NCBI GenBank assembly: GCA_037439705.1
Contig: JBBIVP010000137.1
Coordinates: forward strand, 1-5,820
Source of the DNA: JBBIVP01 sp037439705 [NCBI: bacterium]
GTDB taxonomy: Bacteria > JBBIVP01
DNA length: 5,820 nucleotides
Direction of reading: 5' to 3'
The position numbers and the translations under genes were made by a program. Shown here piece by piece: positions 183 through 5,820 of the stretch. Below the pieces are notes generated by a model. It worked only from the letters and a program-made list of their open reading frames with translations. It was not told where the DNA came from and did not search any database. Every line of letters begins with the position of its first letter. The first letter of the stretch is position 1.

Positions 183-1364
183 ATGGAATACCTGTCAATA
201 ATAGATGTCCCAGCTACAACTTTCTCAGAAAAAAGGATATTTTTAAGGGTTGATTACAATGTTCCAATAAAAGGGGAATTCATCTCTGAACATTACAGAA
301 TAACCCATACTATCCAAACAATTGAATATCTCTTAAAAAAGGATGCCTCAATAGTAATTGCTTCACACCATGAGCAGAAGGATGAAAATGAAGCACCCGT
401 TTATCTTTCCCTTGAACCTGTAAAGAATGCTCTTCAGGACATGCTAAACCAGGAAGTGAAATTTAAAAAGGGAAATATAGATGAATTCTCACTGAAAGGG
501 GCTCAGAATCTCAAACCCGGAGAGATTCTTATGCTTGACAATCTTCGCTTTGACCCGAGAGAAAAAGGGTATTCAAAAAATCCTGATGAGGGATATTGCA
601 AGTTCCTTGCTTCCTTTGGCGATATATATGTATTTGAAGCATTTGGTACTGCCCACAGGAAACATGTTTCAACAAATGGAATGGTTAAGTATTTTAAAAG
701 AAGGTTGATAGGCATTCTTGTCAAAAAAGAACTCGGAGTTCTTGAAAAAATAAGGGACAATCCTGAAAAACCTTTTTGCGTTGTGGTGGGGGGTGGAAAG
801 GTGAAAGATAAACTTTCTGCCCTGAAAAACCTTGCTCAAAAGGCTGATGTGATTCTTACAGGAGGACTTGTTGCACATACCTTTTTAAAAGCGATGGGAA
901 AAAAGGTTGGAAAGGAAATAGTTGATGAGGAGTGGGTAAACTCTGCAAGGGAAATTCTAAACAAGTATAAAAACAAAATAATTCTTCCAGTAGATTATGT
1001 AGTGAGGGAGAAATCAGGAAAAATATCAGTTGTTGGAGATGAAATACCCGAAGGATGTGAAGGATTTGACATAGGTCCAAAAACTATGAAGAGATATGCT
1101 GAAGAGTTAAGAAATAAATCCACCATATTCTGGAACGGTCCTCTCGGAAAAATTGAAGAAGTAGAATTTGAAAACGGCTCTGCGGGAATAGCAAGGGAAA
1201 TTGCTTTGTGCTGGTGGAGAGGAGCAACAACAGTTGTAGGTGGAGGAGATACAATTGCAGTGCTCCATAAGGCTGGTGTAATGGAGAACGAATTTACTCA
1301 CATATCAACAGGTGGAGGAGCAACCCTTCAATACCTTGCTGGTAAGTTGCTTAAAGATTTATAA
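183..1364 (+). CDS. pgk: Phosphoglycerate kinase, divergent at the 3-phosphoglycerate site
   Basis: This is a complete 393-residue protein, the usual length for bacterial Pgk, a cytosolic glycolytic/gluconeogenic enzyme that interconverts 1,3-bisphosphoglycerate plus ADP with 3-phosphoglycerate plus ATP. The N-terminal (3-PG) domain shows LRVDYNVP (21-28; Asp24, Asn26), Arg39, His62, LDNLRF (118-123; Arg122) and EAFGTAHRKH (152-161; Arg159). The C-terminal nucleotide domain shows GGGKVKDK (203-210), FWNGPLG (316-322), VGGGDT (352-357) and HISTGGGA (373-380). Several positions depart from the family. The usual SHLGRP reads SHHEQK, so the Arg equivalent to human Arg65 is Gln65. ENLRF is DNLRF, NDAFGTAHR is FEAFGTAHR, GGAKVSDK is GGGKVKDK and RVDFNVP is RVDYNVP. 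The nucleotide site is intact, so a kinase fold is secure. Whether this is the organism's main Pgk or a diverged paralogue cannot be told, since no gap or tpiA neighbour is visible. The ATG at 183 lacks a Shine-Dalgarno sequence, but the conserved domain begins shortly after it. Confidence 0.95.
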   Translation: MEYLSIIDVPATTFSEKRIFLRVDYNVPIKGEFISEHYRITHTIQTIEYLLKKDASIVIASHHEQKDENEAPVYLSLEPVKNALQDMLNQEVKFKKGNIDEFSLKGAQNLKPGEILMLDNLRFDPREKGYSKNPDEGYCKFLASFGDIYVFEAFGTAHRKHVSTNGMVKYFKRRLIGILVKKELGVLEKIRDNPEKPFCVVVGGGKVKDKLSALKNLAQKADVILTGGLVAHTFLKAMGKKVGKEIVDEEWVNSAREILNKYKNKIILPVDYVVREKSGKISVVGDEIPEGCEGFDIGPKTMKRYAEELRNKSTIFWNGPLGKIEEVEFENGSAGIAREIALCWWRGATTVVGGGDTIAVLHKAGVMENEFTHISTGGGATLQYLAGKLLKDL

Positions 1365-1518: not shown

Positions 1519-2164
1519 TTACCTTCTACAAGTGCAAGTATTGTGAGGATTCTGGCAGAATTCTCTCCAGGGTCCATAACCTTTATCAAAATAGGTATGT
1601 AGTAAAAATATCTCGCCGTCTATATTACCCTGAACTATATCCCACTTCCCATCTCCGTCTACATCTCCTACCGCTGGAGAACCTGTAAAAATAGTATCCG
1701 TTCCATATTCAAGAATAATTCTTCCATCTATTCCACTTACTACATAAATGAAGTTAAAGGTGTGAAATACTATATCTGCGTACCCATCTCCATTTATATC
1801 AACATTTAAAGGATACATAGTAAAAATGGAAAAACCAATTCCTTCTTCGTCTTTCTCTGCCAACTTCTGCAGTTCATCTATTGGATAACTTTCTACAACC
1901 GTGTCTATTCTTGGTGTAAGATCAGGTACATCCAGAATCTGTAATTTTATATAGAAAGTGAATTGTTCAGGGTAATAATCGTAACACTCATAATTAAACG
2001 GGAAGGCACAAATCTCATTTCTGCCCTAAAGTAGAACATTCTACCTTTACATTGTTGCAATAATATTTTGGGTTATCTTTGTTTTTAGCCACCAAATTTT
2101 CACTCACAAAGATATTTTCAACATAATTTTTTTCACTCGTCAAGTTTTTATTAAACCGAGCAAT
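1519..2164 (-). pseudogene. Frameshifted remnant of an FG-GAP/VCBS repeat surface protein
   Basis: The - strand is open from 2025 to a TAA at 1519-1521. The reading holds two FG-GAP/VCBS-type calcium loops, DINGDGYADIVF and DVDGDGKWDIVQ, separated by VVSGIDGRIILEYG and GSPAVG. Such repeats build beta-propeller blades in secreted or surface proteins. The C-terminus is Cys-rich (PWREFCQNPHNTCTCRR). No ATG opens this frame; a TTG at 1861-1863 would give 114 residues but has no clear ribosome site. The frame extends coherently upstream of that TTG (EICAFPFNYECYDYYPEQF) to a TAG at 2026-2028. A second - strand frame, open from 2164 and ending at 2015-2017, reads KDNPKYYCNNVKVECSTLGQK. Removing one T (position 2017) joins the two as ...STLGQKEICAFPF.... 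I therefore read it as a broken gene missing its N-terminus and signal peptide. The FG-GAP call is firm; the upstream join is inference. Confidence 0.6.
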
Positions 2165-2334
2165 TTATTTACTTTTTCTTCGGTGCTTAAATTTAATGGG
2201 TATCTCTTTACTTTAAATTCATATCTGCAATTTTTACACTTTAATTTTTCTTTTCTGATATTCCAAAATTCTTTTCCAGAACACCTCGGGCATAGATCCT
2301 TGATAACCCGATAAAAAATAAAAATGGGGGACAG
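2140..2334 (-). pseudogene. 5'-truncated zinc-ribbon ORF, probable IS1595-type transposase remnant
   Basis: An open - strand frame of 64 codons ends at the TGA at 2140-2142 and is closed upstream by a TAA at 2335-2337. It contains LCPRCSGKEFWNIRKEKLKC followed by KNCRYEFKVKRYPLNL, a CX2C-X14-CX2C zinc ribbon with the aromatic and basic residues typical of the N-terminal zinc-binding domain of IS1595/IS1-like transposases (CPxCGS...RYRCKxCRxxF). No ATG, GTG or TTG codon lies before the ribbon, and no DDE catalytic region follows; the reading stops 27 residues after the last ribbon residues shown. It is best seen as a gene fragment. A small stand-alone zinc-ribbon protein with a rare start codon is the alternative. 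Its 3' end overlaps the far end of the FG-GAP remnant in another frame. Confidence 0.45.
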
Positions 2335-2428: not shown

Positions 2429-3619
2429 TTATGTCATATATCCTGCATTTAATTTTACATATTCGGTAGAAAGGTCGGATGAAAGAACATACGCTTCACC
2501 TTTTCCCTTTCCAACTCTAATTTTAAAATTTATTTTTTTCATGGAAAAACTTCTTTTGTCTTTCACCTCCAGCATCCTCCCATTACTTACAACCAATTTG
2601 CCATTTACCCATATCTTCAGTTGAAATGGATTAAATTTTACTCCCGCTGCTCCTGCTGAAGCTGCTATCCTTCCGTAATTTGGCTCACCTCCATATACAG
2701 CAGTTTTAACAAGTAAGGAATTGGCAACAGAATAAGCAATTTTTTTTGCCATTTCATTGTTCTTTGCTCCCATCACATGAACCAAAAAAATTTTCGTTGC
2801 TCCCTCTCCGTCCCTGACAATATCCTCTGCGAGCCCATTGCATATATTTTGAAGAGCCTCTGAAAAAATTTTCCTCATCCTTTTTGAAGAATCAACTGAT
2901 ATCCCGCTTTTTCCATTTGAAAGAATAAAAACTGTATCATTTGTGCTCCTATCACCATCTACGCTTATTCTGTTAAAACTCACTTCCACCGCATCTTTCA
3001 AAACATTTTTGAGCGTTGACGAAGATGCGAGTGCGTCTGTAAATATAAAACAAAGCATAGTCGCCATTTCAGGACATATCATTCCAGCGCCTTTTGCAAT
3101 CCCGAGTATTGAAAATTCTCCATCCTTTGTCTTCACCTTCTCGCTTTTTAATTTGTAAAAAGAGTCAGTTGTCATAATTGCCTTTGCTGAATTTATAAAA
3201 CTTTCAGAATCATAAGAAAGATTTTTTACAAGAAATTCTGCTTTTGATATAATTTTTTTTACTGGAATCCTTATCCCTATAACCCCTGTTGAGGCAATCA
3301 ATAGTTCATTTTCTCCTGTTCCTAAGGCATGAGAAAAAGCCCTTATTATTTCCTTTGCATCCTCTATCCCCTCTTTTCCAGTTAAAGCATTTGCATTCCC
3401 ACTGTTTGCCACTATTCCTCTAACATATCCTCTTTTTACAATGTTACGTGAAATAATAACAGGAGCAGCCTGAACCCTATTTGTTGTAAAAGTGCCGGCG
3501 CAAGATGCTATAGTCTCTGAAAGAAAAATTGCAAGATCTGGTCTATTCTTCTTTATACCACAATTACAGGAAGAAGTAAGGAAACCTTTTGGGACTATTA
3601 TGCTGTTTTTCCACAGCAT
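2429..3619 (-). CDS. argJ: Arginine biosynthesis protein ArgJ (glutamate N-acetyltransferase / ornithine acetyltransferase)
   Basis: ArgJ transfers the acetyl group from N2-acetylornithine to glutamate, recycling acetyl in arginine biosynthesis; bifunctional members also use acetyl-CoA. It is cytosolic and self-cleaves before a Thr to give alpha and beta chains. The 396-residue length is typical. The cleavage motif is [14 protein letters not shown] (176-189), making Thr187 the predicted nucleophile and beta-chain N-terminus. Other family motifs are [11 protein letters not shown] (44-54), [10 protein letters not shown] (69-78), the oxyanion-hole STGVIG (110-115), MTTDSF (149-154), STNDTV (225-230), RDGEGATK (269-276), [16 protein letters not shown] (309-324) and the C-terminal [15 protein letters not shown]. 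The ATG at 3617-3619 is chosen because an in-frame TAA lies one codon upstream and VPKGF starts soon after. It begins inside the end of secA (22-base overlap), suggesting translational coupling. One oddity is SSCNCG near the N-terminus, where relatives usually have small uncharged residues before GIK. Mono- versus bifunctionality cannot be told from sequence. Confidence 0.96.
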
Positions 3620-5820
3620 TTTTTATACTTCTTTCCACTTCCGCAGGGACAGGGGTCATTTCTGCCAATCTTCTTTTTATCCCTCGTGATTGTTCCTGTT
3701 GGAACCGATGGTCTGTTAAACTGAAGGGTTCTCCTCGGCATTGAGATAGTTTCTTTTCTTTCCTTTGCAAGTTTTGCCCAGAAAATTCTCTGGATAACAT
3801 TCTCTTTTATCCTTCCCAAAAGGTCCTCAAAGAGCGTAAATGCTTCTTTCTTATATTCTACAAGGGGGTCTCTCTGTGCATACCCCCTCAATCCTATTCC
3901 TTCCCTCAAATGGTCCATTGTAAGGAGGTGGTCTTTCCACAGAGAATCTATGGTCGTAATGTATATGAACCTTTCAAGTTTTCTCATAACCTCTGAACCA
4001 TATTCAATCTCCTTTGCTGTATAAAAGTCCCTTATATCCTTTTTCAATTCCTCAATAACATCTTCCCTTTTAACCTCAAGCGCCTCGTTTCCCATCTTAA
4101 ACTGGAAAGAAAAGAACCTTCTTATGCTTTCAACAAATCCCTTCCAGTCCCACTCTGACGGACGCAGGTCCTCAGGAAGATATGTATCTGCTAATCCTTC
4201 TGCTATCTCCTCTGCTATTTCCATAATGTTCTCTTTTATGTCCTCTTTTGAAAGAATTTCTTTCCTTAACTGATATATGACCTCTCTCTGTTTGTTCATC
4301 ACATCGTCATACTCAAGGAGGTGCTTTCTTATCTCAAAATTGTGCGCCTCAACCCTTTTTTGTGCGTTTTCAATCGCCTTTGTTACCCATTTATGCTCAA
4401 TTTTTTCTCCTTCTTTCATTCCAACCCTTTCCATTAAACTCTTGAGTCTATCGGAGCCGAAGATTCTCAATAGGTCATCCTCTAAGGAAAGGTAAAATCT
4501 GCTTGAACCAGGGTCTCCCTGCCTCCCAGCCCTTCCCCTTAACTGATTGTCAATCCTCCTTGCCTCATGCCTCTCTGTTCCGAGAACATGTAGTCCTCCA
4601 AGTTTTACTACCTCTTCGTGCTCTTTATCGCAGATTTCCCTGAATTCTCTGTAATACTTTTCTATCTCTGGGATCGCATCAGGACCAGCCTTTTGCTTTG
4701 CAAGATATTCTGGATTTCCTCCAAGAAGTATGTCAACTCCCCTACCAGCCATGTTTGTTGCTATGGTTACAGCACCCTTCCTTCCTGCCTGCGCTATTAT
4801 CATCGCTTCTTTTTCATGGTGTTTTGCGTTAAGGACATTGTGAGGGATTCCTCTCCTCTTGAGCATCTGGCTCAATTTTTCTGATTTCTCAATGGATATG
4901 GTTCCAACGAGAACAGGTCTTCCAATTTTGTAAAGTTCTTCTATCTCATCCACAACAGCCTTGAACTTTTCCCTTTCTGTTTTATAAACAACATCAGGAT
5001 ACTCATACCTTATAAGTGGTTTGTTTGTGGGAATAACCACCACATCAAGGTTATATATCTTTTTGAACTCAAGCGCCTCTGTTTCAGCAGTTCCTGTCAT
5101 ACCTGCCAGTTTTTTATACATCCTGAAGAAATTCTGATAAGTAATTGTGGCGAGGGTCTGATTTTCCGATTCAATCCTCACCCCTTCCTTTGCTTCTATT
5201 GCCTGGTGCAATCCATCACTCCATCTTCTTCCTGGAAGAAGCCTTCCTGTAAATTCATCCACAATTATAACTTTTCCTTCTTTAACCACATAATCAACAT
5301 CCCTGTGGAATAGGTGATGGGCTCTTAAGGCCTGATGCAGGCAGTGTAAAACATCTATATTCTTCGGGTCATAAAGGTTATCAATTTTTAATAAAGATTC
5401 TGCCTTTGCAATTCCTTCCTCTGTGAGTATAACTGTTTTAACCTTTTCATCAAGTGTGAAATGCTTATCCTTTTCAAGATATCTAACTATGCTGTTAACC
5501 CTGTAATAAATCTCAGGAGATTCTTCAGCAGGACCAGATATTATAAGAGGGGTTCTCGCCTCATCAATGAGTATGCTGTCAACCTCATCAACAATTGCAT
5601 AATTGAACTCCCTTTGAACCATATCCTCAATTGAATACTTCATGTTGTCTCTCAGATAGTCAAATCCAAATTCGCTATTCACACCATAAGTTATATCCGC
5701 ATTATATGCCTTTTTTCTTTGAGCATCATCAAGCCCTGGGATAATAACACCAACCTCAAGCCCCAAAAATTAATAGACAACGCCCATACATGATGCAACA
5801 ATCTTCGCAAGGTAATCGTT
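3598..5820 (-). CDS. secA: Protein translocase subunit SecA, N-terminus outside the window, in-frame stop at 5770-5772
   Basis: SecA is the cytosolic/membrane-peripheral ATPase that drives preproteins through SecYEG. From 5769 to the TAA at 3598 the frame is uninterrupted (723 residues, numbered here from the Leu at 5764-5766). It contains [20 protein letters not shown] (22-41), Walker [16 protein letters not shown] (60-74), the preprotein cross-linking domain (about 80-220), AGMTGTA (221-227), [15 protein letters not shown] (336-350), [20 protein letters not shown] (408-427), the helical scaffold/wing region (about 455-665) and a C-terminal zinc motif [14 protein letters not shown] (706-719) for SecB/ribosome contact. 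Walker A and roughly the first 100 residues lie to the right of the window. Upstream, 5773-5820 stays in frame and reads [16 protein letters not shown], aligning residue for residue with the family's NDYLAxRDxxWMGxxY. A TAA then sits just before FLGL. Elsewhere the gene shows no decay, so sequencing error or a contig-end artefact is the likeliest cause. The window's shorter TTG-started reading is not a believable start. Confidence 0.95.
5770..5772 (-). other. In-frame TAA stop interrupting secA
   Basis: The codon lies between ...MGVVY and FLGLEVGV, where SecA homologues have a single residue (commonly Arg, Glu or Lys) before the conserved FLGL. The reading frame is correct on both sides, so this is a nonsense substitution and not an indel. 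TAA also terminates secA, argJ, pgk and the aminotransferase in this window, which argues against codon reassignment. Confidence 0.85.

What the first reader, a model, noticed from the sequence alone, without database searches (positions are those of the whole stretch)
5767..5820. Nonsense codon in secA within a cluster of non-consensus residues near the window edge
Seen: the - strand reads [16 protein letters not shown], then TAA, then FLGLEVGV, in one continuous frame. Known: SecA homologues read NDYLAxRDAxWMGxxYxFLGL here. The departures are Ile-Val for the usual Arg-Asp, Cys for Trp and a stop for Arg/Glu/Lys, all within about 40 bases, whereas the next 720 residues look clean. Most are explained by G-to-T changes on the coding strand (for example TGG to TGT, GAA to TAA). 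That pattern suggests low-quality bases at a contig or read end. The alternative is a truly inactivated secA, which would imply a second functional copy because secA is essential.
Basis: partly seen in the sequence, partly recalled or inferred. Interest (0 to 1): 0.6.

Follow-up and report, generated by a model that had tools for sequence, protein, structure and literature searches.

The report
Miscalled bases at secA contig edge
The stop codon and odd residues in this otherwise well-kept secA gene are most likely sequencing errors in a 36-base patch next to the end of the available sequence, so this is an ordinary artefact and not a broken essential gene.

Summary
In detail: on the minus strand 5820-5767 reads [19 protein letters not shown], then FLGLEVGV, in frame with an otherwise open SecA of 722 codons. 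In 89 homologues, 87, 87 and 86 carry Arg, Asp and Trp where the window has Ile, Val and Cys; none has a stop there. Departures from near-invariant columns cluster at the edge: 3 of 9 in the last 54 bases, 5 of 213 elsewhere, Fisher p = 0.0024, stop not counted. At the three substituted codons the needed changes all go to T on the coding strand if Arg was AGA or AGG, as 82 of 85 Arg codons here are. The patch has 17 T of 36; the most in 85 homologous stretches is 13. G, then A and C, called as T in late cycles is a documented fault of early Illumina chemistry (PMC2745764, passages). Best reading: one poor 3' read end covering 5767-5802 near a contig end. A true pseudogene is unlikely. Against certainty: one isolate (L074) replaces the same three residues naturally, the last 18 bases are clean, and reads, contig boundary and genome could not be seen.

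The parts
3598..5820 (-). secA, its 5' part beyond the window edge; 722 codons open after the TAA
   Evidence: Open frame; five SecA-related Pfam families above their cut-offs.
5803..5820 (-). clean end of the window: codons for NDYLAK, agreeing with the family
   Evidence: Column counts in 80 homologues.
5767..5802 (-). the doubtful 36-base patch (codons 7-18): Ile, Val and Cys at near-invariant Arg, Asp and Trp, and an in-frame stop; 17 T of 36
5770..5772 (-). in-frame TAA at a variable column
   Evidence: no stop in the first 18 columns in 89 homologues.
5674..5739 (-). three further departures from near-invariant columns (Pro, Val, Ser), possibly lineage variants
   Evidence: the Ser is shared by L070, which also has another residue at the Pro column.

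Best explanation
The TAA and the three unusual residues are base-calling errors in a thinly covered patch (5767-5802) just inside the end of an assembled contig, and the organism's secA is intact. Mechanism: the edge was built from one read, or very few, running in the coding direction from beyond 5820. Bases 5820-5803 come from its better cycles, 5802-5767 from late cycles with excess T calls, and other reads take over from about 5766. Shown: the clustering, the direction of change and the T excess. Inferred: read orientation, depth, platform, and that 5820 is a contig end.
For: Clustered departures at near-invariant columns (3 of 9 against 5 of 213). The patch scores -2.5 with the stop set at -6 by my choice (3.5 without it), below all 88 homologues scored (lowest 8.1, median 39.1). 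Changes needed at the Arg, Asp and Trp codons all go to T if Arg was AGA or AGG (82 of 85 Arg codons). 17 T of 36, against a maximum of 13 in 85 homologous stretches; the 6 of 729 in-frame secA windows with 17 or more T all overlap the patch. G, then A and C, miscalled as T in later cycles (PMC2745764, passages). Errors rise towards read ends, and G is mostly miscalled as T in one HiSeq set (PMC4787001, passages). The window begins and ends inside genes, as a whole short contig would. No other stop in the 722 codons.
Against: The last 18 bases agree with the family. L074, a Sporosalibacterium isolate, replaces the same three residues without any sign of error. Three further departures lie within 150 bases of the edge, and the three secA windows with most T (18) start in the patch but run on into the part that agrees with the family. 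The chemistry with T accumulation was replaced in 2009, and on HiSeq A, C and T were mostly miscalled as G; the platform here is unknown. It is not known that 5820 is a contig end.
Confidence: 0.85

Rival explanations
1. A truly inactivated secA copy, with a second functional secA elsewhere in the genome.
For: The letters as given have a stop and lose three near-invariant residues. The window also holds what look like gene remnants between pgk and argJ. A genome with two SecA-like genes exists: that of L074.
Against: The other 722 codons are open and depart at only 5 of 213 near-invariant columns outside the patch; a decaying gene should show lesions throughout. No internal stop was reported in the listed SecA matches of 85 genomes (54 of 57 and 31 of 31 matched), though many of those matches start downstream of this motif. 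No second copy could be sought, as no genome is held.
Confidence: 0.07
2. The substituted residues are real lineage variation and only the stop (or part of the patch) is an error.
For: L074 replaces the same three columns by Tyr, Gln and Met in mid-contig. The window's lineage is deep and unplaced, and it has other departures nearby.
Against: Only L074 of 89 departs at all three columns (L035 is a gap there). The nearest relatives found, L110, L111 and L003, are canonical here.
Confidence: 0.06
3. The TAA is real and is read through, or SecA is made from two pieces with a restart after the stop.
For: Only that the frame is open on both sides and a TTG codon lies at 5764-5766.
Against: The secA, argJ and pgk frames here all end in TAA. 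A restarted product would lack the GEGKT loop, which lies upstream of NDYLA in the homologues printed. No stop here in 89 homologues.
Confidence: 0.02

Closest known systems
SecA preprotein translocase ATPase
   Same: All five SecA-related Pfam families after the stop; up to 66% identity to relatives; solved relatives in the PDB.
   Different: As written it has a stop and non-consensus residues after NDYLA; its 5' part lies beyond the window.
SecA of Sporosalibacterium (L074)
   Same: Arg, Asp and Trp replaced at the same three columns.
   Different: Other residues, no stop, in mid-contig; its genome also holds a second SecA-like gene.
Late-cycle T miscalls of early Illumina chemistry (PMC2745764, passages)
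   Same: G and then A replaced by T in one read direction.
   Different: The platform and reads of this sequence are unknown.

Membership tests
SecA | SecA DEAD-like, preprotein-binding, P-loop, wing/scaffold and SEC-C domains | tested here: met
   Five Pfam families above cut-off in the 722 codons after the stop; the DEAD-like domain only from profile position 145 of 290.
SecA | Arg-Asp and Trp after NDYLA | tested here: not met
   Ile, Val and Cys as written; attributed to miscalls.
SecA | nucleotide-binding loop GEGKT upstream of NDYLA | not testable with these tools
   Lies beyond the window edge; seen upstream of NDYLA in homologues.
sequencing artefact at a contig edge | clustered departures with a one-sided base bias close to the sequence end | tested here: met
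sequencing artefact at a contig edge | low quality, low depth and strand bias in the reads; contig ends at 5820 | not testable with these tools
   No reads or source record available; no genome held.
pseudogene | lesions spread along the gene | tested here: not met
   722 codons open; 5 of 213 near-invariant columns depart outside the first 18 codons.

The most novel reading that the evidence does not exclude
The letters are real: a deep-branching bacterium carries a nonsense codon and a lost Arg-Asp-Trp motif in an otherwise conserved secA, and either reads through the stop, makes SecA from two pieces, or relies on another SecA.
Probability: 0.04. Interest if true: 0.6.

Novelty: not a real feature. 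Interest (0 to 1): 0.07.

Why it matters
It shows how a short patch of biased miscalls near a sequence end can look like an inactivated essential gene, which argues for flagging contig edges before calling pseudogenes. If real, it would question the need for an intact SecA motor in a bacterium.

Tried and rejected
A compensated pair of frameshifts inside the patch was considered and rejected from the codons: the conserved Met, Gly and Tyr stay in frame. Recoding of TAA: the secA, argJ and pgk frames all end in TAA. A repeat at the edge: the search (16 bases or more) gave none inside 5767-5820; the nearest arm is 5707-5723. A scan of viral contigs for 40 bases of the window found nothing. Papers: SecA with NDYLA, only unrelated papers in the 10 listed of 1,156; secA with pseudogene terms, 2 papers, listing only; listings gave the error-profile papers; PMC4719071 passages did not bear on late-cycle T calls. 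I dropped L113 before the count, as it is the same gene as L003; one search counted distinct stretches.

Full report
What is there. The minus strand from 5820 to 3598 is secA, cut off at its 5' end by the window edge. After the TAA at 5770-5772 the frame is open for 722 codons and matches five SecA-related Pfam families above their cut-offs. argJ (3619-2429) overlaps the end of secA. An argJ match lies in 12 of the 80 homologous loci and in 4 of 10 added relatives, L110 to L113, with the overlap seen directly in L110, L111 and L112. pgk (183-1364) lies on the other strand, and 3-131 looks like the tail of an aminotransferase gene, below the Pfam cut-off. The window thus begins and ends inside genes. 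No whole genome is held for it.

The rest of the gene is not perfectly clean: near-invariant columns also depart at 5737-5739, 5680-5682, 5674-5676, 5236-5238 and 3958-3960. L070 shares the Ser at 5674-5676, so some may be lineage variants. The substitutions are changes to T from G or A, not from G alone. The last 18 bases agree with the family, so the fault is an inner patch.

What it most likely is. Arg is AGA or AGG in 82 of 85 cases in the pgk, argJ and downstream secA frames; with those codons the changes needed at the Arg, Asp and Trp codons all go to T. Four of four to T would have a chance of about 0.012 if all substitutions were equal (my arithmetic). The stop is left out, as its original residue is unknown and some routes to TAA do not end in T. 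The patch holds 17 T of 36, against at most 13 in 85 homologous stretches, and at most 13 (mean 9.4) in the 24 from loci under 45% G+C. Six of 729 in-frame secA windows reach 17 T; all overlap the patch, but the three richest (18 T) run on into codons that agree with the family. In early Illumina chemistry G, and later A and C, were called as T in late cycles (PMC2745764, passages); that chemistry was replaced in 2009. A mock-metagenome study found errors rising towards read ends and, in one HiSeq set, G mostly miscalled as T, but A, C and T mostly miscalled as G (PMC4787001, passages). A read entering from beyond 5820 in the coding direction would give good bases at 5820-5803, poor ones at 5802-5767, and be outvoted below that. 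This mechanism is inferred; no reads were available.

Rivals. A pseudogene should show lesions elsewhere; the frame is otherwise open and conserved. The listed SecA matches in 85 genomes (54 of 57 and 31 of 31) had no internal stop, although many begin downstream of this motif. A natural precedent for losing all three residues exists in L074, a Sporosalibacterium isolate, in mid-contig, from a genome with a second SecA-like gene. That keeps alive the reading that part of the patch is real. Readthrough or a split SecA is unlikely: TAA ends the secA, argJ and pgk frames, and a restarted product would lack the GEGKT loop.

Verdict. An artefact near the end of a sequence, confidence 0.85. The confidence was set at 0.86 in a draft and lowered slightly for the contrary HiSeq pattern and the T-rich neighbouring codons.

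Noticed in passing
L074 6001-8283: SecA of a Sporosalibacterium isolate with Tyr-Gln and Met in place of the near-invariant Arg-Asp and Trp after NDYLA; the genome holds a second SecA-like gene.
   Followed up: partly
window 2143-2307 (-): A 55-residue zinc-ribbon peptide resembling the IS1595 transposase zinc ribbon, just below the Pfam cut-off (22.7 against 25.4 bits), with no rest of a transposase seen beside it.
   Followed up: partly
window 1522-2025 (-): An FG-GAP repeat peptide (PF01839 above cut-off) in a short open stretch with no rest of a gene beside it.
   Followed up: partly
window 183-1364 (+): The PGK is best matched (up to 51%) in the phylum of the L012 genome, titled Candidatus Dadabacteria, where many genomes hold a second, more distant PGK; the SecA points to another group.
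   Followed up: partly
G006:C259:6018-7160: A PGK match with one internal TAA in the genome of L046, another housekeeping gene with an in-frame stop in a metagenome-derived assembly.
   Followed up: no
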